DNA of 64,000 nucleotides from Nocardioides sp. W7 (GTDB taxonomy: Bacteria > Actinomycetota > Actinomycetes > Propionibacteriales > Nocardioidaceae). This document shows positions 8,687 through 36,003 of the stretch, one piece after another (within the stretch, counting starts at the first letter, position 1; each line of letters begins with the position of its first letter). Made by a program: the position numbers and the translations under genes. The stretch covers positions 310,001-374,000 of the forward strand of contig NZ_CP095078.1 in NCBI RefSeq assembly GCF_022919075.1. The letters are read 5' to 3'. The notes under the pieces were generated by a model. It saw only the letters and a program-made list of their open reading frames with translations. It ran no database searches and had not been told where the DNA came from.

Positions 8687-8694
8687 CGTGTCCC

Positions 8695-14101: not shown

Positions 14102-17100
14102 CAGAACGCCGCCCAGTCCTGGCGCCGGCCGCGCCGCTCCAGCTCGTCGATCACGCGCTGCTCGACCCGCTCGACGACCGCGTCGACGAGGGCCTCCAGG
14201 GCACCGCCGGGCTGCAGGTCGTCATCGAGCTCCGCCGGACCCTGGCCCGCCATGGTCGTGGCCGGCGACCCACCGGACGGGGCCGACCAGCGGCGCACCA
14301 CCGTGCCGGGCGAGGACGGGGCCGACCCCCCAGGCGACCACGACTCGTGCTGGTGACCGGACATGGAGGTTCCTCCCTCGTCGAGGAGGCGTCGTACGAC
14401 GCCCTCGGGGACCGAGCTGAACAGGTGGGCGGTGGACTCGACCAGCGAGCGGGGCGCGCCGGCCGGGGTGCTGGTGGGGGTCGACGTCGGCCCGGACGTG
14501 CGGGCGACCGACGGGACGGGGGGCGCGGCGGGGCCGTCCCCGCGAGACGGGCTGATGCTGATCCGGGGCGGGGCGACCGTCATCCGGCTGATCCGGCCGG
14601 CGGGGGCGGCACCGGGGCCGCCGGTCGGACCGGCGCCAGGCGGGGCGATCAGGCCGACGACGGGCACGGGCGGGCCGGACTGCATGGACTGCCCGGACTG
14701 CCCGGACTGCGCGGACTGCGCGGCCAGGCCGGGCATGGTGGGCGCGGGCATGGTGGGCATCGCGGATGACGCGGCGGCCGGGGTGCTGCTCGGCGGGGCG
14801 GCGGGGGTCCACGGGCCGGCGGTGCTCGCCGACGCGCTCGTCCTCGAGGCTGCCATCGGGCCTGCCGTGGTGCGGGTCGGGCCCGCGGGGGTACGCCGCA
14901 GCGGCTCACCGCCGCGGTCGGCGCGGGCGAGCAGGCCGGGGACCGGTACGCCGCCCGGGGCCGGGGGCGCGGTGCGCGCGAACCCGGTCACGGGACCGCC
15001 GCTCGCTGCCGCGGAGCCGCCGCCCGCAGGCGCGGGGGCGACGCGCGCCCAGCGGAGCACGGTGCTCGGCGAGGTCGTCGGGGTGGCGACCTCGCGGATC
15101 GCGGCCGGGGTGGGGTAGGTCGGAGCGCCCGCCGCCGGAACGGCGGACCCGGCCGGGGTGCCGGGGGTCGCCCGCGGGTTGGTCGAGCGAGCGATCACCG
15201 GCGCGGACCCACCCGTCGCGGTCGGTGCGCCCAGGCGCTGGTGAGGCGCCGCCGGGGCGGCGGAGCCGGTCACCGACGACGCGGGGGTGCGGCGCAGCAC
15301 CGGAACTCCCGCCGCGGGAGCGGACGACGTGGGGGCAGACGACACGGGCGATGTGGACGATGTGGACGACGCTGCCGAGCTCGAGGGGGCCGGGCGGGCG
15401 GACCCGTCGGACCGACCGCGAGGCGCGGAGGCAGCCGCCTCGCGCGGGGGCGCGGCGTGCGCGCGCGGAGTCGGGGTGACGAGGGGCCCACCCGCGGCGC
15501 CGGACGTGGTCGCCCCGGTGACCGGGCGGATCGCCTCCGAGCCGGCGAAGCCGGACGCGAGCGACCGGGTGGCATCGACACCGAACGCCGCGCGCCGGCG
15601 CACGGTCATCAGCTCGGGCATCGCGATCGCGCCGCCGGTGGGCGCGGTGTGGGCGTGCGAGCCGGAGAGCAGCGACGCGACCGGGCGGGGCGGTTGCCCC
15701 GCCTGCTGGGTCGCGACCCGTCGGACCGGTGTCGGCGCCGACGGAGTCGTGGCCGAAGCGGCCGGCGCTGCCTGCGGTGCCTGCGCGCCCGGGGCAGATC
15801 CCGTCGTCATCGACAGCGCCGACGACGATGAGGATGAGGATGAGGAGGCCGACGCGGCGGAGGAAGCGGCAGCGGGGGTCGAGACCGTGGGTGCCGAGGG
15901 CGGGGCCGCCGGGGCCGCCGACGACGAGGAGGCTGACCCCGCGGGGGCCGAGGAGGCAGAGGTCGCCGGTGTGCGCCGGACCTCGGTCGGGGCGGTGCCG
16001 GTCGGGGCGCTTGCCGGGGCGCTCGGGGTGCTTGCCGGGGACCCGGGGCGCGCCGTGCTCGTGCTGGACGCGGTGGACGCCGACGGCGCTTGGTGAGCGG
16101 GCCGGCTCGGGCTGGGCGGTGCCACGGCGGCGGGACCGGAAGCGGCGGCTGAGGTGGCCGCCGCGGCGGCGATCCCGGGGGCGACCGAGGAACGGCGGAT
16201 CTCGGTGGCCGGTCGGATCGCGGTGTCGACGACCTCGGGGCTCCACATCCGGCGGATCGAGCGGGCGGTCGTGCGGAAGAGATTGCCCGGGGCACCGCCC
16301 AGCGGCGCCGCGAGCATCGCGCGAGCGGTCAGGTGGGGCGCCGATGCCGCGGGTGCGGTCGGGGTCTCGGCCGCCCGGGTCGCAGTTGCGACCGCAGCCG
16401 CGGACGGCGAGCCGGCGGCGCCGGACGCACCGGAGATGCTCGGGTGCGCGGCCCGGGCCGACTGACGTGCCTGGGCGGCCTCGGCCGCCGGGACCGGAGC
16501 GGACGGGTCGGCGGGCAGCCGATGGATGGTGGGGCCGACAGCCGCGACCGCCGCCGGCGAGGAGGTCCGGGCCTGCGATGCCGAGGCGGGCGAGCCGGCC
16601 GAACCTGCGGCACCGCCGGCCGACGAGCCGGCCGTGGGCGAGGACGTGCGGGTGCCCGGCGCCGGGGTCGGGGACGCGGACCCGGACGGAGCGGACGCCG
16701 ACCCGGATCGCGCCACCGTCTCGGTGGCGGCGGTGCTGCTCGTGCTGCCCGTGCTGGCGCTGTCGATGCTCGACCGGCGCACCGCCGGGGCTGAGGCCGT
16801 GCCGGTCGGCGCGGGCGCGGCCGATGCCGATGCCGCAGCAGCGGCCGCCTCACGGCGGGTCGCCGCCTGGCGCATCACCACGCTGGTGGCGCCCCACAGG
16901 TCGCGACGCGAGGCGGGGGCGGCGGCGTACGAACGGGCGATCAGGTCGGAGCCACCGGCGCGGATCGCGACCGGCGACGAGACGGCGGCCGCGAGGAACC
17001 GGTCGCCGCTGCTGGTCGATGCGGTCGCGAGCTGCTCGACGGCCTGCGGACCGCGGCCGGCGACGGGTGCCCGACGAACGACGCTGCTGAACCGGGGGCG

Positions 17101-18180
17101 GGCGGGCGAGAGCTGCCACGCGGAGCGGCGTACGTCCGGGGCTCCGGCACCCGGGCTCGGCGCCGAGACCGACCGCGCGGTCGCCGTGGCGGTCGCCCCC
17201 GAACCGCCGGACGGGGCGGCCGGCGCGACCGGGCCGGCCGGCGATCCAGACGGCCCGGCACTCGGTGACCGGCGGACCGGGTCCGAGGTCGGGGCCGTCG
17301 GGGCGGAGGTCGGGCTCGTTCTCGGGATGGAGGTCGAACCGGAGATCGAAGAGGCAGCCGTGGGAGCGGAGGCCGCAGACGAACCGCCGCGCTCACCCTC
17401 CGCGCCGGCGTCACCAGAGCTCGCGCGGGGTCCGGCGGGGCTGCTCGCACCCGAGCCGCTCGGGGCCCGGGGGGCGGGCCGGGTGGCGGGCGCGGCCGGG
17501 CTGGGTGCGGGAGCCGGCGGCGCGGACGCGGCGGGTGTACGGCGCACGGTCGGGGTGGGCGCCGGCGCAGCGGCCGCCTCGGCCGACTTGCGAGCGGCGG
17601 TGGCGGCGTGCAGCCGCGCCTGGTCGGCGGCCATCAGCATCGGGCCGGCAGCGACGGTCTCCGTGTGCCGGCGGACGTTGGCGACCTCGGCCTGCAGGCC
17701 GTTGACGATGCCGCCGGGGCTCCAGCTCTGCTCGTTGGGGATCGAGCGGGCGGCCCGGGGCAGCTCGCGGCCACCCAGCTGCTCGGTGGGCAGCGCCCGC
17801 GAGGGGGCCAGCCAGCTCGGGGTCGACGTCGAGGCGGCGACCGCGCGGCGCAGCCCGACGGCGCGACCCGGGCGCACGACCGGAGCGGCCACCACCTCCG
17901 GCGAGGCCGGCATCGGCACCCACCAGCGCGGCGGACGGACGTACCCGGCGAGCGACGCGGAGGGGTCGGGGCCGGCGAGCGCTCGGCGTACCTCCACGGG
18001 GCGCGAGGTGGACGCGGCGAACCGGGAGACGCCGGAGGCGAGGCTGCCGATCCGGGACGGCAGCGGCCGGCCCAAGGGCGGTCCGGGCAGCCGCATCCGG
18101 CGCACGGCAGCAGCGCCCAGCCAGTGGGTGGGCTCCTCGCTGGGCGTCGCGGGGGGAGTCTCGATCGTCGTCTCGGTCAT
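14101..18180 (-). CDS. Giant Ala/Ser/Pro-rich low-complexity protein in the CIS operon (1359 aa), candidate tape measure or tube cargo
   Basis: The protein is mostly disordered (Ala, Ser, Pro, Thr and Gly). It has an ordered-looking N-terminal 190 residues (THWLGAAAVRRMRLPGP; a helix AADQARLHAATAARKSAEAA) and a helical C-terminus (GALEALVDAVVERVEQRVID). A short motif [V/I/L]RR, often followed by [T/S/A]P, recurs about 18 times along the chain. The phrase SWSPGG occurs near both ends. The gene sits between the second tube protein and the LysM hub gene, overlaps the latter, and is the only large unassigned gene in the operon. I infer a scaffold that runs inside the tube, but a toxin carrier is possible. 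No catalytic motif (for example HExxH) was seen. Confidence 0.8.
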   Translation of the reverse strand: MTETTIETPPATPSEEPTHWLGAAAVRRMRLPGPPLGRPLPSRIGSLASGVSRFAASTSRPVEVRRALAGPDPSASLAGYVRPPRWWVPMPASPEVVAAPVVRPGRAVGLRRAVAASTSTPSWLAPSRALPTEQLGGRELPRAARSIPNEQSWSPGGIVNGLQAEVANVRRHTETVAAGPMLMAADQARLHAATAARKSAEAAAAPAPTPTVRRTPAASAPPAPAPSPAAPATRPAPRAPSGSGASSPAGPRASSGDAGAEGERGGSSAASAPTAASSISGSTSIPRTSPTSAPTAPTSDPVRRSPSAGPSGSPAGPVAPAAPSGGSGATATATARSVSAPSPGAGAPDVRRSAWQLSPARPRFSSVVRRAPVAGRGPQAVEQLATASTSSGDRFLAAAVSSPVAIRAGGSDLIARSYAAAPASRRDLWGATSVVMRQAATRREAAAAAASASAAPAPTGTASAPAVRRSSIDSASTGSTSSTAATETVARSGSASAPSGSASPTPAPGTRTSSPTAGSSAGGAAGSAGSPASASQARTSSPAAVAAVGPTIHRLPADPSAPVPAAEAAQARQSARAAHPSISGASGAAGSPSAAAVATATRAAETPTAPAASAPHLTARAMLAAPLGGAPGNLFRTTARSIRRMWSPEVVDTAIRPATEIRRSSVAPGIAAAAATSAAASGPAAVAPPSPSRPAHQAPSASTASSTSTARPGSPASTPSAPASAPTGTAPTEVRRTPATSASSAPAGSASSSSAAPAAPPSAPTVSTPAAASSAASASSSSSSSSSALSMTTGSAPGAQAPQAAPAASATTPSAPTPVRRVATQQAGQPPRPVASLLSGSHAHTAPTGGAIAMPELMTVRRRAAFGVDATRSLASGFAGSEAIRPVTGATTSGAAGGPLVTPTPRAHAAPPREAAASAPRGRSDGSARPAPSSSAASSTSSTSPVSSAPTSSAPAAGVPVLRRTPASSVTGSAAPAAPHQRLGAPTATGGSAPVIARSTNPRATPGTPAGSAVPAAGAPTYPTPAAIREVATPTTSPSTVLRWARVAPAPAGGGSAAASGGPVTGFARTAPPAPGGVPVPGLLARADRGGEPLRRTPAGPTRTTAGPMAASRTSASASTAGPWTPAAPPSSTPAAASSAMPTMPAPTMPGLAAQSAQSGQSGQSMQSGPPVPVVGLIAPPGAGPTGGPGAAPAGRISRMTVAPPRISISPSRGDGPAAPPVPSVARTSGPTSTPTSTPAGAPRSLVESTAHLFSSVPEGVVRRLLDEGGTSMSGHQHESWSPGGSAPSSPGTVVRRWSAPSGGSPATTMAGQGPAELDDDLQPGGALEALVDAVVERVEQRVIDELERRGRRQDWAAF

Positions 18181-18210: not shown

Positions 18211-18687
18211 TCAGGTTTGGGTCTTTGCCCGAAAACCGTGATGCGTGACCTCGAGCTCCTCCTCGAGCGGATCCCTGCTCTCGGCCGAGAAGTCGGGACC
18301 CTTCCAGCGGACGGGGAAGACGTCGATCAGCTCCCAGGCGCGCAGCCGGGTGCCGAGGTGGTCGAGCGCGGTGATCGCGCCGGTCGACCGGGTGAGCTTG
18401 TTGCTGCTGGCCGCGAAGCCCTCGCCCGAGGACTTGTTGAGCCACTCGAAGAGCGCGTTGCCCTGGGTGACGCCGCGTCGGAACACGATGTTCGGCCAGG
18501 TCATCCGGCCGGGGACGCGGTGGCTGAAGCCGTTCTGGCCGCCCTCGCGGAACTCCTCCACGTTGACGGTCACCTGGAGACCGTGGATCTCGCGGAAGAC
18601 GCCGATCTCGACGCCGTCCAGCTCGAACAGGAACCGGCTCGCGGTGGGGAGCTCCCCACCCAGCGGCTCGGACGCCTGGTCAGCCAT
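18211..18687 (-). CDS. Second tail tube protein (gp19 family, Afp5/Cis5-like, 158 aa)
   Basis: Clear T4 gp19 family features are present: TASRFLFELDGVEIGVFREI at the N-terminus, VPGRMTWPNIVFRRGVTQGN in the middle, and a C-terminal strand (EELEVTHHGFRAKTQT). In Afp-type particles this less abundant tube protein starts the tube on the hub. Its ATG lies inside the DUF6760 gene (8-bp overlap). Confidence 0.93.
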   Translation of the reverse strand: MADQASEPLGGELPTASRFLFELDGVEIGVFREIHGLQVTVNVEEFREGGQNGFSHRVPGRMTWPNIVFRRGVTQGNALFEWLNKSSGEGFAASSNKLTRSTGAITALDHLGTRLRAWELIDVFPVRWKGPDFSAESRDPLEEELEVTHHGFRAKTQT

Positions 18688-19388: not shown

Positions 19389-19859
19389 TCACTTGACTCG
19401 CTCGAGGCGCTCGATCACCAGGGTGATCGTCTCCTTGAGGGCGTCGTTGGAGTCGGCGGAGACGCCGTCGGTCGCGATCTTGCTCGGCCAGCCGCTGAAG
19501 AAGTTGAACCGGCCGACCTCGGTGCCGACGACGTCGTACAGGACGATCGAGCCGTTCTTGCGCTTGTCGGCGCGGTTGGCGCCGGCCATGCCCTTGTCGC
19601 GGATGTCGGTGAACCACTTCCAGATCGGGTCGCTCATGGCGTCGAGCGGGGCCATGCGGGTGATCGAGAGGTCGGCCGTCTTGTTGGCGGTGCCGCGGGT
19701 CTTCACGGTCTCGGCGATGCCCTTGGCACCGACCTGCTGCATCTCGACGACGTCGATCTCCTGCTCGAAGCCGGACACGCCGGACAGGATGATCGCGGCG
19801 CCGTCGAGCTCCAGGAAGAAGTTCTGGGAAACGATCGGGTCGGACTTGATGAGGCTCAT
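19389..19859 (-). CDS. Main tail tube protein (gp19 family, Afp1/Cis1 type, 156 aa)
   Basis: Sequence features are SDPIVSQNFFLELDGAAI, the insertion loop GIAETVKTRGTANKTADL, and SDPIWKWFTDIRDKGM, typical of the hexameric inner tube of eCIS particles. It sits 37 bp behind the sheath gene in the same operon. As the most abundant structural subunit along with the sheath, it forms the channel for cargo. Confidence 0.95.
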   Translation of the reverse strand: MSLIKSDPIVSQNFFLELDGAAIILSGVSGFEQEIDVVEMQQVGAKGIAETVKTRGTANKTADLSITRMAPLDAMSDPIWKWFTDIRDKGMAGANRADKRKNGSIVLYDVVGTEVGRFNFFSGWPSKIATDGVSADSNDALKETITLVIERLERVK

Positions 19860-22923: not shown

Positions 22924-22942
22924 CGGACCGCCGGCGGCGGGA

Positions 22943-23843: not shown

Positions 23844-23847
23844 CTGG

Positions 23848-24447
23848 TCAGCTCGCCCCGGTTTCGAGGGTGGCGGGGCGACGCTCACGCGGCCGGTCCA
23901 TGCGCTCGGCCATCGCCGAGACCCGCTCGACCGACGGCGGGGTGGCCGTCCAGTCGAACGAGTCGGCGCCGACGTTCACCTGCAGGGTGGTGGAGGCCTT
24001 CAGCGACCCGCCCGCAGCGCTCCACAGCTCCCGGGGCAGGCTCCGATCGTCGCCGAGCGACAGCAGGACCGAGGTCGACATGGGGGCGGTGAAGAACTCC
24101 TCCGGCAGGTTGTCGGCCGCCGCGAACAGGCTCACCAGGTCGCCGAGCAGCTGGTGCTCGTCGCGCGGGCTGCCCGCCCAGGCGCTCACCAGGTAGCTCA
24201 GCTGCACCATCGGCTGCAGCTTTCGACGCTGCAACGACCCGCCCTCGGCGGTGCGGTGCATCGGCGAGCGCGACGGCTGGGTGCTGCGCTGGACGTCGTA
24301 CAGGAAGAAGTTGACGGTGATCCGGGACAGCTGGGCCGACCAGTTGCCGGTCGGGGCGTCGAACGCCACGTCACCGATCTCCTCGGGGAGGGGCAGGCGC
24401 GCCCGCACCATGCGCTCCAGCCCGGAGTCGACGTTGCTGATGAACAC
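23848..24447 (-). CDS. DUF4255 protein, CIS tail cap/terminator (Afp16/Cis16 type, 199 aa)
   Basis: The conserved family start is VFISNVDSGLERMVRARLPL, followed by VAFDAPTGNWSAQLSRITVN, FFLYDVQRSTQ, LSYLVSAWAGSPRDEHQLLG, and the final RPRERRPATLETG. I start at the GTG at 24447 because the open frame back to the ATG at 24537 uses AT-ending codons unlike coding DNA of this genome. The protein caps the tube and sheath at the end far from the baseplate. It opens the small operon with the lipoprotein and PAAR-like genes and is divergent from the giant membrane genes. Confidence 0.9.
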   Translation of the reverse strand: MFISNVDSGLERMVRARLPLPEEIGDVAFDAPTGNWSAQLSRITVNFFLYDVQRSTQPSRSPMHRTAEGGSLQRRKLQPMVQLSYLVSAWAGSPRDEHQLLGDLVSLFAAADNLPEEFFTAPMSTSVLLSLGDDRSLPRELWSAAGGSLKASTTLQVNVGADSFDWTATPPSVERVSAMAERMDRPRERRPATLETGAS

Positions 24448-24651
24448 CGGCGTGAGTCTGGCACGGACGACCGGCCGGCACGGGGGAATCGGCGCCTCCG
24501 GACGGACCGGAGGTGGACTAGACGGCAAAATCCCCATTCCGCCACGCGTACGGGCGGCCGCTCCTAGTCTGACACGGCTTCCCCGGCCACATCTGAACCC
24601 TCGGTAGGTCTCCGTGCTCCGCTCCGCTCAGCGCCCCTGCGCAGCGTCAGT

Positions 24652-27063
24652 GTGCACCCCCAAGGGCGGTACGACGTGCGGGTAGCCACCGAGAACCGGG
24701 TGGTCATGGCGGAGCCGGGTTCGACCATCGACCTGGTCGTCGACGTCGTCAACACCGGCGACCTCATCGACGGTGTCACCGCGAGCCTCATCGGGCTGCC
24801 GGGCGCGACGGTCGACGTCGAGCCGAAGGTGCTCCCGCTCTTCCCGTCCGCGCAGGGCCAGATCCGGCTGACCGTCGAGGTCCCCGCCACCCAGCCCGCG
24901 GGCTCGCACCCGGTGAGCGTCGAGGTCGTCTCGCACGGCAGCGGAGCGGTCTCCCAGCACGTCGACATCGACCTGTCGGTCTCGGCCCGGCCCGCCGTCC
25001 GCCTCGGCCGCACGCCGCACACCGTGCGCGGACGCCGCAACGGCCGGTTCGTGCTCGAGGTCGAGAACACCGGCAACACCGCGCTCGACGCCAGCCTCGA
25101 CGCAACCGTCGAGGACGGCCGTACGACGACCCGGTTCACCCCGCGCACGCTCCGGGTCGAGCCGGGAGTCACCACCCCCGTCATCCTGGTCGTCAAGGGG
25201 CCCCGGATGTTCACGGGCGCCGAGCTCGACCGCACCGCGGCGATCAACCTCACCGCCAAGCGGACCAACGTCATCTCGGCGATGCAGGAGGCGGAGAACG
25301 AGCCCGAGCTCGAAGCCGCCACCACGGTCGTCCTGCGCCAGCGGCCGACGATCAGCCGCGGGGTGCTGACCGCGCTGATCCTGATGCTGATCATCGGCCT
25401 GTGGGCCGCCGTCTTCCTGCTCGGCCTGACCCAGGTCCTCGCCGGCGACCCGCTCACCAAGACCGCGCCCGCATCGTTCTTCCCGGTCAGCGCCGAGGAG
25501 GCCGCGGCCGAGGCCGACGGCGCAGGGTCCGAGGGCGGATCCGAGGGCGAGGCGGCCGGAGGCGGGGACGCGGCGGCCGCCGCGCCGGCCGGGGCCATGC
25601 CCAAGGACGGCCTGCTGCCGCCGGGCGTCGGCGGCACCATCGAGGGGGTCGTCACCGCGACCAGCAACGAGCTGCCCGTCGGCCGGATCCTGGTGGAGGC
25701 CTACCGCGACGGCCGCAAGGGCCCGCAGCTGGTCAGCTCCGCTGCCAGCCAGACCGACGGCACCTACTCGCTGGTCGGGCTGTTCCCCACGTCGTACCGG
25801 CTGAAGTTCAGCGCCAAGGGCTTCGAGCCGGTCTGGTACCCCGCCAAGAAGAACCCCGCCCGAGCGACCCAGGTCCCCGTCTCCGCCCAGGGGAAGGTCG
25901 CCGGCATCAACGCCGTCGTCAGCGGCCTGCCCGCGCAGATCCAGGGCACCATCGACCAGGGCTCGTCGCTCGAACCGGCCGAGGCGACGGTCACCGCGCG
26001 GCCGCTCGACATGCTGACCCCCGAGGGGCTGCCCGTCGGGGTCGTCGCCCAGACCACGACCACCAACGGCGCGTACACGCTGACCGGGCTGCCCGCGCCC
26101 GCGACCTACGAGCTGAGCTTCGAGTTCGTCGGGTACGCCGTGAAGAAGGTCGTCACGAAGGTCTCCGGCGAGGAGCAGCGCCTGCAGCCGAGCATCGTGC
26201 CGAGCGCCTCGGCGGGGACCATCAGCGGCACCGTCACCGACGGCCGGCGGAAGCCGCTCGGCGGCGTCACGGTGTCCACGACCATCGCCGGCGAGACCGT
26301 CTCGATCGTCACCCCGACCGTCGGCGTGGTGGGGCAGTACACCCTCGGCGACCTGCCGACGCCCGGCACCTACGTGCTGACCTTCACCTCCGAGGGTCAC
26401 GGCTCGACCTCGGAGGTCGTGGAGCTGGACGCCGGGCAGACCCGACCGGGGCTGAACGTCCGGCTGATCGCAGGCACCGGGAGCATCACCGGCCACCTCT
26501 ACGACCTGGACGGCAAGGGCATCGGCGGCGCCACGGTGACGGTCGGCGGCGCGAGCGGCATGCCGGCCGCCACCGGCGCGGACGCCGTCACCGGCAGCAC
26601 CCCGCTGGTCCCGACCGCGACCACGCTCACCACCGGTGACGTGGGCAGCTTCAGCCTCAGCGGCCTGCAGGCGCCGGGCGAGTACACCCTGACCTTCAGC
26701 CTGAAGGGCTACGCCGCCCAGTCGGTGCCCGTCGTGCTCAGCGAGAGCGGACCGAGCAACACCCTCGAGGTCACGCTCACCACGGAGCTGGGTCGCCTGG
26801 CGGGCGTGGTCGTCGACGCCTCCGGCACGCCGTACGTCGGAGCGACCGTCTCCGTCACCAACGGCCAGCAGACCTGGACGGCCACCTCGGGCGCCGCCGG
26901 CACCGGCGACCTGCCGGCCGGTGGCTACCGCGTGAACGGCCTGCCGCCCGGCAGCTACTCCGCGACCGTCACCGCACCCAACATGAGGCAGCAGACCGCC
27001 CTCGTCACGATCATCGCCGGCGTCGACACCACCCAGCGGCTGCGCGTGCGGAGGGCCGACTGA
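24652..27063 (+). CDS. Membrane protein: two cytosolic Ig-like domains, one span, CarboxypepD_reg repeats (803 aa)
   Basis: Residues about 1-225 hold two NEW3/CARDB-like beta-sandwiches (IDLVVDVVNTGDLIDGVTAS; FVLEVENTGNTALDASLDA). A membrane span covers about 238-262 (LILMLIIGLWAAVFLLGL). An acidic Ala/Glu/Gly linker follows, and then about five CarboxypepD_reg repeats to the end (GTIEGVVTATSNELPVGRI; GTISGTVTDGRRKPLGGVTV). The basic RQRPTISRG flank predicts N-in, C-out, and there is no signal peptide. The N-terminal half resembles the so-called hydrolytic protein beside Streptomyces CIS genes (from memory). It is divergent from the CIS cap gene. The GTG start is uncertain by some codons. Confidence 0.8.
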   Translation: MHPQGRYDVRVATENRVVMAEPGSTIDLVVDVVNTGDLIDGVTASLIGLPGATVDVEPKVLPLFPSAQGQIRLTVEVPATQPAGSHPVSVEVVSHGSGAVSQHVDIDLSVSARPAVRLGRTPHTVRGRRNGRFVLEVENTGNTALDASLDATVEDGRTTTRFTPRTLRVEPGVTTPVILVVKGPRMFTGAELDRTAAINLTAKRTNVISAMQEAENEPELEAATTVVLRQRPTISRGVLTALILMLIIGLWAAVFLLGLTQVLAGDPLTKTAPASFFPVSAEEAAAEADGAGSEGGSEGEAAGGGDAAAAAPAGAMPKDGLLPPGVGGTIEGVVTATSNELPVGRILVEAYRDGRKGPQLVSSAASQTDGTYSLVGLFPTSYRLKFSAKGFEPVWYPAKKNPARATQVPVSAQGKVAGINAVVSGLPAQIQGTIDQGSSLEPAEATVTARPLDMLTPEGLPVGVVAQTTTTNGAYTLTGLPAPATYELSFEFVGYAVKKVVTKVSGEEQRLQPSIVPSASAGTISGTVTDGRRKPLGGVTVSTTIAGETVSIVTPTVGVVGQYTLGDLPTPGTYVLTFTSEGHGSTSEVVELDAGQTRPGLNVRLIAGTGSITGHLYDLDGKGIGGATVTVGGASGMPAATGADAVTGSTPLVPTATTLTTGDVGSFSLSGLQAPGEYTLTFSLKGYAAQSVPVVLSESGPSNTLEVTLTTELGRLAGVVVDASGTPYVGATVSVTNGQQTWTATSGAAGTGDLPAGGYRVNGLPPGSYSATVTAPNMRQQTALVTIIAGVDTTQRLRVRRAD

Positions 27064-29702
27064 TGCACGTCGACATCACCCCGCGCCGGTTCGAGCTGAT
27101 GCCGGGCGTCCCCCAGCCGATCAACGTCACGATCAGCAACACCAGCGACGTCATCGGCGGGTACGCCGTCCGCATCCTCGGCGCCGACCCGTCCTGGATC
27201 ACGATCGACGACGCCGAGATCTCGCTCTTCCCGGACGAGAGCCGCACCGTGAGCGTGCTGGTCTCCGTGCCCGACGGCATGACCGCGGGCGAGCGCCGGC
27301 TCGCCGTGCAGGTGCGCGAGCTGACCCCGCCCGAGGGGGCGGTGGTCGAGGAAGTCGTGTTCACGGTCCCGGAGGCTCCGGCCGTCCAGCTGCGGGTCGA
27401 CCCGATGGCCGTGACCGCCGGCCGGACGGCCCGGCTGAACCTGCTCATCGACAACACCGGCAACACGCCGATCCACCGGCGCCTGCACGGCCAGGACCCG
27501 GAGAGCCGGGTGCGGTTCAGGTTCGAACCGCCGATCCTCAGGCTCGAGCCCGGCGAGCACGCCCTGGTGGATATGCGGGCCAGCGCCAAGCAGCCGTTCC
27601 TCGGCAACCCGGTGGTCCGACCCCTGGAGCTCCGGCTGGTCGACCCCGACTACGTCCCCGCCGCGCCACCGCCCGAGGAGAAGGACGAGACGGCGAAGCT
27701 CGCCCGTCCGAAGCTGCGCCGCAAGCCCCCCGTGCCGCGGATCGACGACGAGACCATCCCGTCGCTCGCGAACGCCACGTTCATCCAGAAGCCGGTGATC
27801 TCCCGCGGTCCGGTGTCACTGATCGGCCTGCTGATCGCCGTCACCGTCTTCGCGATCGTCATCACCCTCTCGCTGTCGCGCCTGGTCGGCCAGTCCGCCG
27901 CCGACCGCAACCTGGCGCTCGAGATCGCCGCGGCCCGCGATGGCGGGGCGAGCACCGGGACCTCCGGCCTGGCCGGCACGGTCTCCCTGCTCACCTCCGG
28001 CGCCCCCGTCGAGGGGGTGACCGTGAGCGTCTTCTCGGCAGCGGACACCGAGGCCCCCCTGGCCACGACCGCGACGTCCGACCAGGGCACGTGGAGCCTC
28101 GGGAAGCTCGCCGCCGGCGACTACAAGGTCACCTTCCGTGGCGCCGGGTTCGTCCAGCTCTGGTATCCCCAGGCCCTGGACCCTGCCGACGCCGAGACCG
28201 TCACCGTCGAGGCCGGCGCCGACCAGCAGGGACTCGACGTGGCCCTGGGCGGGGTCCCCGCCTCCATCGCGGGCGTCGTCGACGGTCCCGACGTCGCCGC
28301 CGCGACCCTGACCCTCCGGGCCCCGCTGAGCGGCATGGCCGCCGGCACCGTCAGCCCCGCCGACACCGGCGACGTGTCCACCGCCCAGCAGGGCGCGGTC
28401 GTCATGACCGTGCCCGTCGGCGACGACGGCAGCTTCGTCCTCGAGAACGTGCCCTCGCCGAGCGTCTACGACCTGGTGGTCGAGAAGCCCGGCTTCGCCA
28501 CCTCCACGCAACGCGTCGACGTCTCCGCCGGCGAGGAGCGGACCGGCGTCGAGATCACGCTGCGCCAGGGCGACGGCCTGATCAGCGGCATCGTCAGCTC
28601 CGCGGCAGGCCCGCTCGGAGAGGCGACGATCACCGCCACGTCGGGCCAGACGACCGTTACGACGATGTCCGTGAGCGAGGGCGACCCGGGCACCTTCAGC
28701 CTGCGTGGCCTGCCGACGCCGGCGACCTTCACCGTCGTGATCAGCCTCGCCGACTACGCCAGCCAGACGCTGACGGTCACCCTCGCCGACGGCCAGCGAC
28801 TGACCGGCATCGGCGTCACCCTGGACAGCTCCTCGGGCCAGCTCTCCGGGCAGGTGCTGACGGCCGCCGACGAGCAGCCGGCGGCCGGTGTCCTGGTGTC
28901 GGTGACCAACGGCGTCCAGACCGTGCAGACGGCCACCACCAGCTCCTCGGAGACCGAGGATGGCGGGCACTGGAAGGTCACGGGCCTGGCGCTCCCCGGC
29001 AACTACACGGTGACGTTCAGCCGCTCCGACCTCGAACCCCAGACCGTCGCGCTCGCCCTCGACGCCCAGGGCCGGCTGGTGACCGACAACGGCAGCACCG
29101 CCACTGCGCAGGAGGTCCAGATGGTCTCCGCCACGGCGGTCGTCCAGGGCACGGTCCTGCAGCGCCAGCGCACCGTCGGCGGGACCACTCCCGCCGCGGT
29201 CCCGATCGGCGAGGCCACCGTCACGCTCACGTCGAACGCCTCGACGTACACCGTGACGACCGCGAGCGTCCCGCAGCGCAACGCGGGCCAGTACCGGATC
29301 GCCGGGGTCCCGCCGGGCACCTACACGCTCAGCATCGGCCGCAACGGGGTCAGCCCCGTCTCGCAGATCGTGGAGCTGACGGCCGGCCAGACCTTCACCG
29401 GCGAGACCACGCTCTCGGTCGCAGCCTCGGTGACCGTCACGGTGGTCGACGCGCAGGGCTCGCCCGTCGGCCCGGGCTGGGTCGTCGAGCTCTACCGCTA
29501 CGCGGAGTACCCCGACTCGGTCTACCGGCTCGGACGTACTGGTCAGAACAGCACGGTCACGTTCGAAGACGTCGACGCCCCCGGGGCGTACATCATCCAG
29601 ATCAAGGCCACGCGGGGCGGTGCCTCACGCGGATCGACGACGATCCGCGTCGACGCGAGCGAGTCCGCGACGGCCACGGTGGAGGCACGCTCAGATGGCT
29701 GA
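27063..29702 (+). CDS. Paralogous membrane protein with outside CarboxypepD_reg repeats (879 aa)
   Basis: It has the same plan as the preceding gene. Two cytosolic NEW3-like domains cover about residues 1-205 (HVDITPRRFELMPGVPQPIN; RLNLLIDNTGNTPIHRR). A basic, Pro-rich stretch (LARPKLRRKPPVPR) leads to one span at about 251-275 (LIGLLIAVTVFAIVITLSL). The rest is about six CarboxypepD_reg repeats (GDGLISGIVSSAAGPLGEAT and similar) ending in a domain with VTVTVVDAQGSPVGPGW. The ATG overlaps the upstream stop by one base. The cytosolic half is the more conserved part relative to its paralogues. Confidence 0.82.
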   Translation: MHVDITPRRFELMPGVPQPINVTISNTSDVIGGYAVRILGADPSWITIDDAEISLFPDESRTVSVLVSVPDGMTAGERRLAVQVRELTPPEGAVVEEVVFTVPEAPAVQLRVDPMAVTAGRTARLNLLIDNTGNTPIHRRLHGQDPESRVRFRFEPPILRLEPGEHALVDMRASAKQPFLGNPVVRPLELRLVDPDYVPAAPPPEEKDETAKLARPKLRRKPPVPRIDDETIPSLANATFIQKPVISRGPVSLIGLLIAVTVFAIVITLSLSRLVGQSAADRNLALEIAAARDGGASTGTSGLAGTVSLLTSGAPVEGVTVSVFSAADTEAPLATTATSDQGTWSLGKLAAGDYKVTFRGAGFVQLWYPQALDPADAETVTVEAGADQQGLDVALGGVPASIAGVVDGPDVAAATLTLRAPLSGMAAGTVSPADTGDVSTAQQGAVVMTVPVGDDGSFVLENVPSPSVYDLVVEKPGFATSTQRVDVSAGEERTGVEITLRQGDGLISGIVSSAAGPLGEATITATSGQTTVTTMSVSEGDPGTFSLRGLPTPATFTVVISLADYASQTLTVTLADGQRLTGIGVTLDSSSGQLSGQVLTAADEQPAAGVLVSVTNGVQTVQTATTSSSETEDGGHWKVTGLALPGNYTVTFSRSDLEPQTVALALDAQGRLVTDNGSTATAQEVQMVSATAVVQGTVLQRQRTVGGTTPAAVPIGEATVTLTSNASTYTVTTASVPQRNAGQYRIAGVPPGTYTLSIGRNGVSPVSQIVELTAGQTFTGETTLSVAASVTVTVVDAQGSPVGPGWVVELYRYAEYPDSVYRLGRTGQNSTVTFEDVDAPGAYIIQIKATRGGASRGSTTIRVDASESATATVEARSDG

Positions 29703-32700
29703 CGACAGGTACGACGGAATCGAGCCGCGCCCGCTCGTCGGCGTGGCCCCGCAGATCGGCACCGCCGCCGCCGTCCCGACCACCCTGCGCGTCGCGGTCA
29801 CCAACGCCGCCGCCCAGCCGCGGGTGCTGTCGGTGGCCGCGGTCGGCCTCGACGCCTCGTGGACCACGGGGCCGCAGCGCACCGGCGTGCTCGCGCCCGG
29901 AGGCTCCGCCGTCGTCGAGATCCGGCTCTCCCCGCCGCTGGGCACGCTGCCGGCGCACTACCCGCTGGTGGTCGCCGCCCAGCCGCTCGACCCCGAGACC
30001 GGCCAGCCCACGAGCCCGGTGACCGGCACCGCCGAGTCCGTGCTCGTCGTCAACCCGCGATCGCAGCTGTCCCTCGACGTCAAGCCGGCCGCGGTGACCC
30101 TGATCGGGGCGCGCCGGTTCGCCGTCGAGCTCCACAACAGCGGCGCGGTGACGGCCGAGGTCAAGCTCGAGCTCAAGTCGAGCACGCACGTCAGCTTCCA
30201 CCTCCAGCGCGACGTGGTCCGGGTCAAGCCGAGCGAGACGGTCACTGTCCGCGCCCGGGCCCGGGCCCGGCGACCCACCATGGTCGGCCCGCGCTCGGTG
30301 CACTCGTTCACGGTGAGCGCCCGGGGCTCGGAGACCGTGCGCCACGTCGACGGACAGATCATCCAGCGGTCCCTGATCGGGCCGACCGGCGTCAAGGCGT
30401 TCTTCCTCCTCCTCGCGATCGCCGTGTGGGCGGGGGCCGCCATCGTGTTCATCCCGGCGCTGGCCGAGCGGGTGCAGACCTCCTCGGAGGAGTCGGCGGC
30501 CGCGGAGTCCCCGGGCGGTGAGGACGCCGAGAGCGAGGGCGCCGACGCGGCCGCCGGCGAGGACGGCGAGGACGGCGGGACAGAGGACGGCGAGGACGCC
30601 GCGGGCGAGGAGGACGCCGCCGGGGAGAAGAAGGAGGGCCTCCAGCTCAGCGGCACCGTCGCCGGCGAGAGCCCCGAGGGCGTCTCCGTGCAGCTGGAGC
30701 CCACCTCGCTCGTCAACGAGAAGGCCCAGGGCGGCACCGGGGTCGGCGTCGAGGACGCCGTCCTGGACGGCACGGGCATGCGCCTGGCGTCGGCGTTCCT
30801 GCGCAGCGCTCCCGAGCGCGCCGTCGCCGAGCGCAGCGTGCAGACCTCCCAGGACGGCTCCTGGGCGTTCCCGTCGGTGCCGACGCCCGGCTACTACCTG
30901 GTCAGCTTCACCAAGCCCGGCTACCAGACCCAGCGGTTCGTCGTCGACTCCAGCAGCGAGGCGGCCGGCGAGCCCCTCGAGTTCGACCTGAAGTCGGGAG
31001 AGGGCTCCCTGTCGGGACGGATCACCGGCCCCGACGGCAAGCCCGAGGGCGGGGCCTCGATCACCATCACCGACGGCACCAACACCGCGGTGACCAACAG
31101 CAACTCCAAGGGCGACATCGGCGCCTGGTCCATCGAGGGCCTCTCCACGCCGAGCACGTACGTCGTGACCGCGACCAAGCACAACATGAGCAGCGAGGCC
31201 CGCGTCGTACCCCTCGGCGCCGGCGGGTCCGCGACGGCCTCGCTCAAGCTCGTCTCCGGTGTCGCGCTCCTCACCGGCAGCGTCGAGGCGTCCGGCCTCG
31301 GCGGCCGGAGCGCGGGCGTCGGCGGCATCACCATCACCGTGAGCGACGGCAAGGGCGACGTCCGGACCGCCACCACCCTCACCCAGGACCCGCGCGGCAG
31401 CTACTCGATGCCCTCCCTCCCGGCACCCGGCACCTACTCGGTGACCGCGAGCGGCGCCGGCTACCAGCCGCAGACCAAGGCGCTCACCCTGAAGAAGGGC
31501 AAGGCCACCGCCACGCTCGACTTCGACCTGAACCCCTCGACCGGTCACCTCAGCGGCCGGGTGCTCGCGACCGACGCCGACGGCGTCACGCGGGGCTGGC
31601 CGAACACCGGCCTGACGCTCAGCAACCCCGACCACACCTACAAGACGATGAGCACCGAGGCGACCCGGCCGGGTGACGAGAGCGGCAGCGGCAGCTACGA
31701 GTTCGCGGGCGTGACGCCCGGCTCCTACGTGCTGACGGCGTCGTACTTCGGCAAGAAGACCCTGCACCAGAACGTCGAGGTGAAGACCGGTCCGTCGAAG
31801 TCCTGGACCCTCCGGCTCGAGAACGACGGCAGCGACGGCCTGACCGCCAGCTCCACCATCGAGGGCTCGGTGCTGGACGCCGTCACCCAGCTGCCGGTGC
31901 CCGACAACATCTGCGCCCTCGCCGGCTCGGTGCCGGACTGCCTGACCGCGACGGTCAACCAGCCGAAGGTCCCGAGCACCACCCCCGAGACCTACGACAC
32001 CTTCACGACGTCGTTCGCGCCGGGCGAGAACTACACGCTCCCGGACCCCGAGGACAACGCGGACGCGTTCCTGCGACCCGGCCTGCACACCGTGACCGTC
32101 CGGGTGCCCGGCTACGAGGTCGGCACCGTCGACGTCGAGCTGGGCGTCGAGACCGCCGCGATCGCGCCGCTGGCCCAGCTCTTCCCCGCCCCCACCGTCT
32201 CCGGCCTGGTGACCGCGTCGTACGACGGCACCCACCCGACCAGCTGCGTGTGGGTCGTCCCCGGCAACCTCGGCAGCGCCCAGCTGGAGGACCAGCTCGG
32301 CAGCTGCAAGGCCGCCCAGACCGCTTCGCCGCCGCGCTGCACCACCTCCAGCTACCCGTTCCTGAACGAGGGCGTCCCGTCCAACGCCTGGTGTGCCGCG
32401 AGCGTCCCCGACGGCTCGGACGGCTCGACCGGTGCCGACGGCGCGTACAGCGTCCAGGTCCCGACGGTCGGCGACTACACCGTGTGGGCGCAGCCGCTGA
32501 ACCCCGAGTACGCCGCCTCGGAGCCCCGCTACGTCAATCTCGGGCGTGGGGAGACCGAGACCGCGAACCTCACCCTCGCGCGGTACGGCGAGATCACGCT
32601 GCAGGTCCTGCAGCCGGGCCCGGACGACGACAAGTTGATGGCGGTGGTCGACGGGACCGAGGTCGAGGTCACGGTCGGCGCGCGGCGGGTCACTACCGAG

Positions 32701-35700
32701 GTCACGACCACGGGCGGCGTCGCGAGGGTCACCGGACTGCTGCCGAACGTCCAGTACACCGTCAAGGCCGAGACCGACCTCGTGGACGGCGAGGCTCCCG
32801 ACGACGTCACCCTGGCCACCGTGTCCGGCACCACCTCCGGCCTCGCGGCCGGGATGAACCAGGCGACGCCGGCCAAGCTCCGGCTGATCCAGCCGATGGA
32901 AGGCATCACCGGCCGGGTCACCACGAGCCTCGACGACGCCGCGCCCGGCGCCGACAGCCTCGTCGGCGCCAAGGCCACGCTGAAGCTGGCGCGGACGTAC
33001 GACGCCGCCGATGCCCCGGTCTACCCCGTGCCCGCCGCCGAACTCACCACCGACGCCCGTGGCTGCTTCGCCGTCAGCGCGATCCAGGCCGGCCCCAACC
33101 CCGAGCGCCGGGACGCGTGCAAGGGCGACGGCCTCGGCGACAGGTCCTGGCCCACCGGCTCCATCGCCAACCGGGACATCGCCACCAGCCGGGTCCAGCA
33201 GATCACCGTCTCCGCAGACGGGTACGTCTCCCAGACCTACGAGAACCACCCGTTCAGCAGCATCGCCCTCACGTCGTTCAAGCTCGACCCGGCACCGACG
33301 GCGTTCCCGGCCACGTCCGCGATCGGCTACACCCCGGTGCCGACCAACCCGCAGCCCACCGACGGACCGGACTGGTCGCAGGTCGCCGTCAAGGTGACCG
33401 GCAAGCCGTCGAAGGCGGGGACGATCACCGTGGGGCTGACCGGCACCGGGACGGACCGGACGCTGACCTGGTCGGACTCGAAGCTCGCCCCCGGGCAGGT
33501 GCTTCCCGGCACCTACACGGTCGACGTGGAGACTCCTGCCGACTACGCGCCAGTGGTCGGCGCGAAGGTCGTGTGTCCCGTGGGCGGCGGCGCCTGCTCG
33601 TGGACGATGTACGGCGACGCCGCCACCACCACGCCGAAGCTCAAGAAGCGCGGCTCCCTCAAGATCGAGGTGAGGGGCCAGCTGTACCCGTCGGGCTCCG
33701 ACCCCCTCAAGGAGGAGGGCATCTCGGTGACCTACGGGGCCGGGGCCAGCAGCCCGGCCGACGACACCGACGCGACCGGAGTGGCCCTCTTCCCGGGGCT
33801 GGTCCCGGTGATCCAGGACAACCCCCCGTTCACCGTGGCGGACGTGGCCGGCTACGCGCCCGGCAGCACCGCCAACGGGACGCTCGCGCTCTCCTGCATC
33901 AAACCCGGCACCACCGACACCTCCACCGGCACCCAGGTCGTCATCGCCCCGGGCCTGGTCACCACGTGCACCCTGACCCTGACCAAGAAGCTGAGCACGG
34001 TCGCGGGCACCCTGGTCGGCCTGATGCGGGCCGAGGACTCGACCGAGACCCCCCAGACGGGCCAGTCCAACGAGGAGAACCTCGGCAACGTCACCGTCAC
34101 CCTGGACAAGTGCACGGACGTCTCGTGCACCGGCACCAGCACCGGGTCCGGCTGGCCGATGACCCGGGTGACCTCCCTCGGCAACACCAACGACCCCACG
34201 ACCGGCGGCGCCTTCCGCTTCGCGGCGACCACCAGCGAGCTGGGGCCGGGCACCTACCTGGTCCGCGTGCAGCCGGGCGACCTGCCCGCGGGCTACCAGT
34301 CGCCGAGCGACGCCAACCGCACGGTCGTGACGCTGGCCCAGGGCCAGGACCGGACGGACCTGACGGTCAACCTGTACGCCGCTTCGGTCGGCCTCACCGT
34401 CAACGTGGTCGACGACGCCGGCCGAGCGGTGACCGACGCGACGGTCTACCTGCACCGCCGCGCCGTCACCTCCCCCGGGGTCGAGGCCGACCAGCACATG
34501 GCGACGAACACCGCCGGCGCGTACCGGTTCACGGCGGTCGTGCCCGGCTGGACCACGGTCTGGATCAAGGCACCGGGGATCGGGGACGGGAAGCGGGTCC
34601 TGGTCCGCACCAACAGCACCGGCCAGAGCGAGACCGTGACCGTGAACCGCCCGCGCGGTGGCGCCACCGGCCTGGTGACCACGATCGAGAGCAGCTCGAC
34701 GGTCCCGCTTCCCGGAGCCACGGTGACCCTCACCTGCCCGACGTCCGGCCCGACGCCCGGCCGGCCCCCGGTGGCGTACTGCCGTGACGCGGAGCCGGCG
34801 GTCGACATCGAGGGCGAGCCGCTGGAGCGGACCACCGACGAGCAGGGCGGCTACACGTTCGCCGACGTCGCCGTCGGGACGTACGTCGCGACGTACCACA
34901 AGCGCGGCTACGGCTCGACGCCCCAGACCGTCGTCGTCATCACCGCCGCGGGCGGCGACGACGTCCAGGACCCGGTCTCGCTGGAGGGCAAGTGGCAGCA
35001 GGTGAAGATGTCGCTGACCTCGGCGGACACCAGCACCGACCTGTCGGATGCCCTGGGCGGGCTGAAGGTCCGGCTGGTGGGCCTGAACGGCACTCCCTCG
35101 GCGGGCACCGCGGACGTCACGGGCAGCGGCGGGACCTTCACCGCCGGCTTCTCCCGAGTTCGCTGGGGCTGCTACCGCGTCGAGTTCGACCGCCCGACCA
35201 CCTGGCAGGGTGCGATCGTGGGTCCGGCGACGCCGCCGACCCCGACCCCCACCGGGCCGTGCGCCGGCGCCGACCTGGTGATCGCCGACGACAGCACGGG
35301 GACGGTCACGACGCTCTCCTACAGCCTGCGCAGCGGGCGGCTGCCCTGGAAGTTCACCCGGGAGGCCCAGCTGGTGCAGACGCTGCCGGCGGTGACGCTC
35401 ACCCTCACGCCGGAGACCGGCGACCCGATCGTCGTCACGGGAGCGACCACGGGCAACTCGCGGTTCGTGCCGCCGGGCAGCTACGCCGTCACAGCGGCGG
35501 TGCCTGCGGGCGATGCGGCGTACTGGCAGATCACCGCGCCGACCGCACGCGTGACCGTGCCCGACGGCAGTGCGGCGGCCACCCCCGCGTCGATCCACTT
35601 CAAGGAAGTGCTCTTCGAGGTGACCGTGACGGTCCCGAGCCTGACCGGCACGGAGCAGGCGCAGATCCGCTACAGCTCCGGCGCCGGACAGACCGCCACC

Positions 35701-36003
35701 GCGCCGGCGAACAACCTCGTCGAGACGGACGCCGGGAAGCAGGCGAAGCTGTACCTGCCCCGGGGCAAGTGGCTGATCCGCGGCGCCTGGTCGACCGGGC
35801 CCGGCGGCTCGGTCATCGACGTGCTCGCCGGGTCGACCCTGACCCTGCAGCTCGATCCGTTCGTGACGACCACCGGCACGCCGACGCCGTCGGGGGGCCC
35901 GACCAGCCCCTCGTCGTCCCCGACGACGACGGCACCCTCGCCGGACCCCACGACGACCGCGCCCTCGGACCCCGGCACCCCCAGCGCAGTCGTGACGCCG
36001 TGA
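29695..36003 (+). CDS. Giant paralogous membrane protein with very long outside arm (2102 aa)
   Basis: The start is the ATG at 29695 (GGTGGAGG eight bases before), overlapping the previous gene by 8 bp. Two NEW3-like domains occupy residues 1 to about 225 and a span about 235-255 (AFFLLLAIAVWAGAAIVF). A highly acidic linker runs about 265-315 (GEDGEDGGTEDGEDAAGEED). Then about 1700 residues of CarboxypepD_reg and related beta-sandwich repeats (GSLSGRITGPDGKPEGGASI; GLTVNVVDDAGRAVTDATV) follow, and a Ser/Thr/Pro tail. There is no LPxTG signal; the span is the only anchor. The outside arm could reach far beyond the cell wall. Confidence 0.85.
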   Translation: MADDRYDGIEPRPLVGVAPQIGTAAAVPTTLRVAVTNAAAQPRVLSVAAVGLDASWTTGPQRTGVLAPGGSAVVEIRLSPPLGTLPAHYPLVVAAQPLDPETGQPTSPVTGTAESVLVVNPRSQLSLDVKPAAVTLIGARRFAVELHNSGAVTAEVKLELKSSTHVSFHLQRDVVRVKPSETVTVRARARARRPTMVGPRSVHSFTVSARGSETVRHVDGQIIQRSLIGPTGVKAFFLLLAIAVWAGAAIVFIPALAERVQTSSEESAAAESPGGEDAESEGADAAAGEDGEDGGTEDGEDAAGEEDAAGEKKEGLQLSGTVAGESPEGVSVQLEPTSLVNEKAQGGTGVGVEDAVLDGTGMRLASAFLRSAPERAVAERSVQTSQDGSWAFPSVPTPGYYLVSFTKPGYQTQRFVVDSSSEAAGEPLEFDLKSGEGSLSGRITGPDGKPEGGASITITDGTNTAVTNSNSKGDIGAWSIEGLSTPSTYVVTATKHNMSSEARVVPLGAGGSATASLKLVSGVALLTGSVEASGLGGRSAGVGGITITVSDGKGDVRTATTLTQDPRGSYSMPSLPAPGTYSVTASGAGYQPQTKALTLKKGKATATLDFDLNPSTGHLSGRVLATDADGVTRGWPNTGLTLSNPDHTYKTMSTEATRPGDESGSGSYEFAGVTPGSYVLTASYFGKKTLHQNVEVKTGPSKSWTLRLENDGSDGLTASSTIEGSVLDAVTQLPVPDNICALAGSVPDCLTATVNQPKVPSTTPETYDTFTTSFAPGENYTLPDPEDNADAFLRPGLHTVTVRVPGYEVGTVDVELGVETAAIAPLAQLFPAPTVSGLVTASYDGTHPTSCVWVVPGNLGSAQLEDQLGSCKAAQTASPPRCTTSSYPFLNEGVPSNAWCAASVPDGSDGSTGADGAYSVQVPTVGDYTVWAQPLNPEYAASEPRYVNLGRGETETANLTLARYGEITLQVLQPGPDDDKLMAVVDGTEVEVTVGARRVTTEVTTTGGVARVTGLLPNVQYTVKAETDLVDGEAPDDVTLATVSGTTSGLAAGMNQATPAKLRLIQPMEGITGRVTTSLDDAAPGADSLVGAKATLKLARTYDAADAPVYPVPAAELTTDARGCFAVSAIQAGPNPERRDACKGDGLGDRSWPTGSIANRDIATSRVQQITVSADGYVSQTYENHPFSSIALTSFKLDPAPTAFPATSAIGYTPVPTNPQPTDGPDWSQVAVKVTGKPSKAGTITVGLTGTGTDRTLTWSDSKLAPGQVLPGTYTVDVETPADYAPVVGAKVVCPVGGGACSWTMYGDAATTTPKLKKRGSLKIEVRGQLYPSGSDPLKEEGISVTYGAGASSPADDTDATGVALFPGLVPVIQDNPPFTVADVAGYAPGSTANGTLALSCIKPGTTDTSTGTQVVIAPGLVTTCTLTLTKKLSTVAGTLVGLMRAEDSTETPQTGQSNEENLGNVTVTLDKCTDVSCTGTSTGSGWPMTRVTSLGNTNDPTTGGAFRFAATTSELGPGTYLVRVQPGDLPAGYQSPSDANRTVVTLAQGQDRTDLTVNLYAASVGLTVNVVDDAGRAVTDATVYLHRRAVTSPGVEADQHMATNTAGAYRFTAVVPGWTTVWIKAPGIGDGKRVLVRTNSTGQSETVTVNRPRGGATGLVTTIESSSTVPLPGATVTLTCPTSGPTPGRPPVAYCRDAEPAVDIEGEPLERTTDEQGGYTFADVAVGTYVATYHKRGYGSTPQTVVVITAAGGDDVQDPVSLEGKWQQVKMSLTSADTSTDLSDALGGLKVRLVGLNGTPSAGTADVTGSGGTFTAGFSRVRWGCYRVEFDRPTTWQGAIVGPATPPTPTPTGPCAGADLVIADDSTGTVTTLSYSLRSGRLPWKFTREAQLVQTLPAVTLTLTPETGDPIVVTGATTGNSRFVPPGSYAVTAAVPAGDAAYWQITAPTARVTVPDGSAAATPASIHFKEVLFEVTVTVPSLTGTEQAQIRYSSGAGQTATAPANNLVETDAGKQAKLYLPRGKWLIRGAWSTGPGGSVIDVLAGSTLTLQLDPFVTTTGTPTPSGGPTSPSSSPTTTAPSPDPTTTAPSDPGTPSAVVTP

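What the first reader, a model, noticed from the sequence alone, without database searches (positions are those of the whole stretch)
24652..36003. Three tandem N-in/C-out paralogues with cytosolic Ig-like pairs and growing outside arms, divergent from the CIS cap gene
Seen: all three share two NEW3-like domains before a single span and CarboxypepD_reg repeats after it. Total lengths are 803, 879 and 2102 residues; the genes overlap by 1 and 8 bp. Two of the three have acidic linkers just after the span. Known: a membrane adaptor is needed for the Streptomyces cytoplasmic CIS, and proteins of similar N-terminal plan sit by those loci (from memory). Inferred: the cytosolic pair docks the baseplate while the arm senses or crosses the envelope.
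Basis: partly seen in the sequence, partly recalled or inferred. Interest (0 to 1): 0.78.

Follow-up and report, generated by a model that had tools for sequence, protein, structure and literature searches.

The report
Three membrane arms beside injection machine
Next to the genes for a phage-tail-like injection machine, many soil actinobacteria carry an inherited set of three related membrane proteins with matching domains inside the cell and outside arms of three fixed lengths; they are probably how the machine is held and triggered at the cell envelope, although their best-studied relatives have been called its toxic cargo.

Summary
Window 24652-36003 (+) of a Nocardioides-type genome holds three overlapping paralogues (803, 879, 2102 aa). 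Each has two PapD/NEW3-like domains, one span and a CarboxypepD_reg arm. They sit beside a contractile injection system (CIS) cluster. The N-terminal pair belongs, by profile, architecture and position, with S. coelicolor Sco4256-4258, published as 'CIS effectors', so the family is known.

New here:
(1) the family tracks one CIS clade (class sample: 49 of 49 carriers have the baseplate gene; 0 of 331 genomes without it carry the family);
(2) its outer domain is exchanged (ricin, ChW, PG-binding, FN3/SPOR, CarboxypepD);
(3) the trio is an old set, each position one clade, with arms of 527±18, 614±17 and 1781±57 aa in 15 loci;
(4) arm cysteines are even in 45 of 45 proteins, supporting an outside location;
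(5) trio loci encode a CisA-like zinc-ribbon anchor without an outer domain;
(6) all four trio genomes of the genus sample carry separate eCIS_core proteins, a known cargo class.

I favour a membrane docking/sensing set over luminal cargo (about 0.55). Docking is untested, and the published empty-tube phenotype argues for cargo.

The parts
24652..27063 (+). P1, 803 aa: two PapD/NEW3-like domains (residues about 7-232), span (about 236-263), disordered linker, arm of five CarboxypepD_reg-type domains
   Evidence: start codon GTG, start not proven
27063..29702 (+). P2, 879 aa: same plan, span at about residues 251-269, arm 610 aa; conserved juxtamembrane VGQSAADRxLAL motif
29695..36003 (+). P3, 2102 aa: same plan, span at about residues 235-253, arm 1849 aa with 18 cysteines
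25357..25440 (+). transmembrane helix of P1 (model residues 236-263)
27813..27869 (+). transmembrane segment of P2 (hydropathy)
30397..30453 (+). transmembrane segment of P3 (hydropathy)
23848..24537 (-). CIS cap, Pvc16_N, divergent from P1
19897..21468 (-). CIS sheath
19389..19859 (-). CIS tube protein (gp19 family)
18211..18687 (-). second CIS tube protein (gp19 family)
14101..18180 (-). 1359-aa Ala/Ser/Pro-rich protein at the tape-measure position
11682..14048 (-). CIS hub/spike (GPD and gpV domains)
9279..11231 (-). CIS baseplate J protein (TIGR02243, 433 bits)
8057..8690 (-). CisA-like protein: two zinc ribbons, proline-rich linker, span, ends about 2 residues after the span (start approximate)

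Best explanation
The three proteins are a fixed set of bitopic membrane accessories of a cytoplasmic contractile injection system, not its cargo. Shown here: the N-terminal PapD/NEW3-like pair is the constant part of a Sco4256-type family that occurs with one CIS clade; the part beyond the span is exchangeable and often made of wall-, glycan- or surface-type domains; the trio is an old, jointly inherited set with three arm lengths; the arms look exported. Inferred: the pair faces the cytoplasm and holds the CIS particle, directly or together with the CisA-like zinc-ribbon anchor, while the two shorter arms lie in the cell wall and the long one reaches through it, so that wall damage or an outside ligand is passed to the particle and triggers firing. 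At about 4 nm per domain the arms would be roughly 20, 25 and 75 nm long (an estimate, not a measurement). Which CIS component is bound (baseplate or cap) is open.
For: Co-occurrence: genus 4/4 against 0/55; order, all 26 genomes with a pair match over 70 bits have the CIS baseplate gene; class 49/49 against 0/331. Constant pair, exchanged exodomain. P1, P2 and P3 each one clade at 97-100% support; arm lengths nearly constant in 15 loci and for P1 in 49 of 50 further loci. Even arm cysteines 45/45. SCO4256 listed as a membrane glycoprotein (PMC6593405). The CisA-like protein in the window and three further trio genomes ends just after its span. Separate eCIS_core proteins in all four trio genomes of the genus sample and only in genomes with a CIS baseplate gene. 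A further family joins a zinc ribbon resembling CisA's with PapD/NEW3-like domains and spans in one chain, and was met only in CIS-positive genomes.
Against: In S. coelicolor the sco4256-4258 triple mutant has about 85% empty tubes against about 3% in wild type and behaves as a CIS-null, and the proteins reduce E. coli viability (PMC10066040); Sco4256 was found in purified particles (PMC10020575). No interaction with any CIS component was tested here. Charge alone does not settle N-in for P2 and P3.
Confidence: 0.55

Rival explanations
1. Effector cargo: as published for Sco4256-4258, the proteins are loaded into the CIS by the conserved N-terminal pair and released on firing, the C-terminal part being the active domain.
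For: Empty tubes and loss of cell death in the triple mutant, toxicity in E. coli (PMC10066040); Sco4256 in purified particles and the proposal of toxic cargo (PMC10020575); constant N-terminus with a variable C-terminus is also what polymorphic cargo looks like.
Against: SCO4256 is listed as a membrane glycoprotein; exodomains found are wall-, glycan- or surface-type, none enzymatic by Pfam; arm lengths are almost constant; E. coli toxicity is also seen with CisA; other cargo candidates exist: eCIS_core proteins here and Sle1/Sle2 in S. lividans (PMC13277306).
Confidence: 0.25
2. Self-protection or envelope repair: a set of wall-bound anchors that reinforce the envelope or seal the puncture where the CIS fires, without holding the particle.
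For: Wall-, glycan- or surface-type exodomains, strict CIS co-occurrence.
Against: The cytoplasmic pair is as well conserved as the arms in P1 and P2 and is the only part common to all relatives, which a purely outside role would not need; loss of the relatives abolishes killing rather than raising it.
Confidence: 0.1
3. Regulated-proteolysis signalling: cleavage beside the span, at the conserved outside motifs, frees the cytoplasmic pair as a firing signal.
For: Strongly conserved juxtamembrane motifs GDPxTKxAPASFF in P1 and VGQSAADRxLAL in P2.
Against: No protease gene in the cluster was identified; P3 lacks such a conserved motif.
Confidence: 0.06
4. Ordinary surface adhesins that happen to lie beside the CIS genes.
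For: CarboxypepD_reg arms are common in surface proteins (general knowledge).
Against: Presence and absence follow the CIS in genus, order and class samples; one genome without the baseplate gene holds only a 147-aa open frame of the pair.
Confidence: 0.03

Closest known systems
Sco4256-4258 of the Streptomyces coelicolor CIS (PMC10066040, PMC10020575)
   Same: Tandem paralogues in the CIS cluster, highly similar N-terminus, single span, C-terminal domain outside the common part; trio-based profiles find such proteins beside the CIS in Streptomyces-like genomes
   Different: Outer part is a long CarboxypepD_reg arm of fixed length, up to about 1850 aa, instead of ricin or other short domains; the three trio members are old, distinct clades. 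Published as effectors; the reading here is membrane anchor or sensor
CisA (SCO4242), membrane adaptor of the S. coelicolor CIS (PMC12237407)
   Same: Bitopic, cytoplasmic N-terminus, CIS-linked, proposed docking and sensing role
   Different: CisA has a zinc-ribbon, largely unstructured N-terminus and a 150-residue outer domain; the trio has a folded PapD-like pair and repeat arms. Trio loci carry a separate CisA-like gene without the outer domain
eCIS_core (PF13699, DUF4157) effectors
   Same: Linked to CIS presence in the genus
   Different: The trio lacks the domain; the five eCIS_core proteins of this genome lie elsewhere on the chromosome
TssJLM membrane complex of the type VI secretion system
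   Same: Possible role only: tie a contractile machine to the envelope (general knowledge)
   Different: No sequence comparison was made here

Membership tests
Sco4256-4258-type CIS-associated bitopic proteins | Shared N-terminal PapD-like (NEW3-like) pair | tested here: met
   Trio-based profiles hit Streptomyces-like proteins with the same plan, including ricin copies beside the sheath gene, at 185-277 bits; tree. The Sco sequences themselves were not at hand, so the link to them is by architecture and position
Sco4256-4258-type CIS-associated bitopic proteins | Single transmembrane segment after the pair | tested here: met
Sco4256-4258-type CIS-associated bitopic proteins | Encoded with a type IId CIS and absent from CIS-negative genomes | tested here: met
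   for CIS linkage; the IId subtype itself was not assigned here
Sco4256-4258-type CIS-associated bitopic proteins | Toxic in E. coli and needed for filled tubes | not testable with these tools
   published for Sco4256-4258
CisA (SCO4242) family | Cys-rich zinc-ribbon N-terminus | tested here: not met
   for the trio: folded PapD-like pair, mostly no cysteines. The neighbouring gene 8057-8690 does have two ribbons
CisA (SCO4242) family | Conserved outer domain of about 150 residues | tested here: not met
   trio: CarboxypepD_reg arms; CisA-like gene 8057-8690: ends about 2 residues after the span
eCIS_core effectors | PF13699 domain | tested here: not met
   absent from the Pfam scan of the trio; five other proteins in the genome have it

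The most novel reading that the evidence does not exclude
The trio plus the CisA-like zinc-ribbon anchor form a trans-envelope trigger complex of a Gram-positive cytoplasmic CIS: a cytosolic docking face of PapD-like domains and three outer arms of fixed length that measure or cross the wall. It would do for monoderm CIS what the TssJLM complex does for the type VI system, and would mean that the 'Sco4256-type effectors' are anchor and trigger.
Probability: 0.3. Interest if true: 0.82.

Novelty: new variant of a known kind. Interest (0 to 1): 0.6.

Why it matters
How a cytoplasmic contractile injection system meets the membrane and is told to fire is an open question; among the papers read here CisA is the only membrane adaptor tested. 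This family is tied to one CIS clade, has a constant inside part and an exchangeable outside part, and is currently labelled effector. The trio, with three fixed arm lengths and a CisA-like neighbour that has no outer domain, gives a clear way to test anchor and trigger against cargo. It also extends the question to genera such as Cellulomonas and Nocardioides, outside the Streptomyces life cycle in which CIS-linked cell death was described.

Tried and rejected
Trio as CisA itself: rejected; CisA is a separate zinc-ribbon protein and a CisA-like gene is present too. The 1359-aa protein 14101-18180 as an enzymatic effector: no Pfam domain, no span, mostly Ala/Ser/Pro with conserved ends, so more likely a tape measure. 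Charge rule alone for topology: clear for P1, not for P2 and P3, so cysteine parity was used. A scan of genome contigs with the 12-row N-terminal alignment failed for lack of conserved stretches, and with the single P1 protein found nothing; the 15-row P1 alignment worked. The same alignment found no relatives in viral contigs. Acidic linker as a functional mark: not conserved. Literature searches with 'hydrolytic protein' and 'carboxypeptidase regulatory' gave nothing. A first 12-row alignment mixed strands and was discarded.

Full report
What is there. The window is positions 310001-374000 of a single 5.51-Mb contig. The genus is inferred to be Nocardioides: contigs of sister genomes in the same sampled genus agree in length with named Nocardioides records. 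On the minus strand, 9279-24537 is a contractile injection system: baseplate J (TIGR02243, 433 bits), hub/spike, two tube proteins, sheath and the Pvc16_N cap. Divergent from the cap lie three overlapping plus-strand genes of 803, 879 and 2102 aa, with overlaps of 1 and 8 bp. Each has an N-terminal pair, one span and CarboxypepD_reg repeats. A profile of the three N-terminal halves finds only these three places in the genome.

Fold. The N-terminal pair of P1 is predicted at mean pLDDT 91 from 16 sequences, as two Ig-like domains followed by a long helix. Foldseek ranks the SPD-2 domain of CEP192 and chains of ciliary central-pair complexes first. The second aligner places the first domain on the Ig-like domain of Micromonospora sialidase (Z 12.4, rmsd 1.9, 98 residues) and both domains on PapD-family chaperones. 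[quoted passage not shown] The full P1 model shows the pair, the span, a disordered linker (262-322) and beta-sandwich domains after it, about five by strand pattern.

Which family. Profiles built on the trio find, in other actinobacteria, proteins of about 440-660 aa with the same pair and span but different C-terminal parts. Pfam names outer parts as Ricin_B_lectin, ChW, PG_binding_1, fn3 plus SPOR, or PKD; the type met most often, about 100 aa long, has no Pfam name. The architecture with ricin copies beside the sheath gene is that of Sco4256-4258, reported as three proteins with a highly similar N-terminus, one span and a ricin-type C-terminus in two of them (PMC10066040). The Sco sequences themselves were not at hand, so the link is by profile, architecture and position.

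Tie to the CIS. In 59 genomes of the genus, the full trio is in G000, G014, G038 and G049, and the close-type baseplate gene (over 400 bits) is in exactly those four. In 294 genomes of the order, all 26 genomes with a pair match over 70 bits have TIGR02243, mostly within 2-30 kb on the same contig, and all 25 genomes with a baseplate match over 400 bits have the pair. In 395 genomes of the class, 49 have a pair match at E 1e-20 or better; all 49 have TIGR02243, and none of the 331 genomes without it does. These counts were made by hand from the tables. Of 47 class genomes with a baseplate match over 390 bits, only G453 lacks the pair, and in the 34 kb fetched around its baseplate gene no sheath was found. 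One genome without the baseplate gene holds a 147-aa open frame of the pair (L072).

The trio as a set. In 15 trio loci from several GTDB families the order is always P1-P2-P3. The arms beyond the span measure 527±18, 614±17 and 1781±57 aa. In a tree of 70 pairs, P1, P2 and P3 are each one clade at 97-100% support with similar inner branching, while ricin and ChW exodomains are mixed on closely related pairs. P1 homologues occur in Nocardioides, Cellulomonas, Sanguibacter, Actinotalea, Jiangella, Phytoactinopolyspora, Rarobacter, Pseudactinotalea and several metagenome-assembled actinobacteria; 49 of 50 have arms of 484-577 aa. P1 and P2 are conserved along most of their length, whereas the distal part of P3 falls to about 0.2 mean identity, as expected of an exposed surface (inference).

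Topology. There is no signal peptide. K+R before the span exceeds K+R after it in 15/15 P1 and 47/50 of the wider P1 set, but the count is level for P2 and P3. The arms carry an even number of cysteines (zero included) in 45 of 45 proteins; all 15 P3 arms have 10-20, always even (by chance about 3e-5 for P3 alone if the sequences were independent, which they are not fully). In the wider P1 set 48 of 50 are even, mostly zero. Paired cysteines fit disulphides outside the cell. SCO4256 is listed as a membrane protein in the S. coelicolor glycoproteome (PMC6593405).

Relation to CisA. CisA is bitopic with a cytoplasmic N-terminus and is needed for contraction (PMC12237407). CisA-type genes beside baseplate J in two Streptomyces-like genomes show zinc ribbons, a disordered stretch, a span and an outer domain. 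At the same position the window (8057 to about 8690, minus) and three other trio genomes have a protein with two zinc ribbons, a proline-rich linker and a span, ending 1-5 residues later; tblastn finds the ribbon protein in the other trio loci wherever the fetched DNA covers the place. Profile comparison supports only one ribbon (probability 84%), so it is called CisA-like. Trio-type systems thus have an anchor without an outside part and a separate set of proteins that is mostly outside.

Cargo or anchor. The published case for cargo is strong in one respect: the triple mutant has about 85% empty tubes and behaves as a CIS-null. Against it stand the glycoproteome entry, the wall- or surface-type outer domains, the near-constant arm lengths, the toxicity of CisA itself in E. 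coli, and other cargo candidates: S. lividans SLP carries Sle1 with Sle2 (PMC13277306), and all four trio genomes in the genus sample have eCIS_core proteins, five in this genome, while eCIS_core in the genus sample occurs only in genomes with a CIS baseplate gene. I weigh anchor/sensor at 0.55 and cargo at 0.25. Loss of luminal density could be indirect if the proteins are needed for loading or maturation at the membrane; that is a guess.

Limits. The first-look filter of the genome search scored only part of its candidates in the larger samples, so absences there are strong but not absolute.

Noticed in passing
G000:C1:2778944, 2285984, 5252782, 2049823, 1170856 (loci L137-L141): Five eCIS_core (PF13699) proteins scattered over the chromosome, none in the window; one has a weak ADP-ribosyltransferase match in its C-terminal part. 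They are likely CIS effectors encoded away from the CIS cluster.
   Followed up: partly
L127-L135: A second family in CIS-positive genomes: an N-terminal zinc ribbon ending in YLGW, as in CisA, then three to four PapD/NEW3-like domains and three to four spans; in G212, G586 and G674 it lies near the CIS baseplate gene, elsewhere far from it.
   Followed up: partly
window 8057-8690 (-): CisA-like zinc-ribbon protein that ends just after its span, lacking CisA's outer domain, in the window and three other trio genomes.
   Followed up: partly
window 14101-18180 (-): 1359-aa Ala/Ser/Pro-rich protein with a recurring VRR motif at the tape-measure position; only its two ends are conserved between species.
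   Followed up: no
window 36032-44389 (+): Fourth gene 28 bp after P3: a 2785-aa protein with a signal-peptide-like start and no Pfam domain; similar long genes follow the trio in G093 and G317 and perhaps G292.
   Followed up: partly
window 23379-23888 (-): A protein with a Septum_form (PF13845) match is encoded between sheath and cap and is conserved in the Nocardioides trio loci.
   Followed up: no
L072 (G066): A 147-aa open frame holding only the start of the N-terminal pair, in a genome with no TIGR02243 match: possibly a relic of a lost CIS.
   Followed up: no
L109-L110 (G453): A very high-scoring baseplate J (725 bits) with no pair protein, and no sheath in the 34 kb fetched: possibly a decayed CIS cluster.
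   Followed up: no
L054, L064, L078, L089 and relatives: The outer domain met most often in single-copy relatives (about 100 aa, ITDxVxxNxxGDxG ... NFRDxDYH) has no Pfam name.
   Followed up: no
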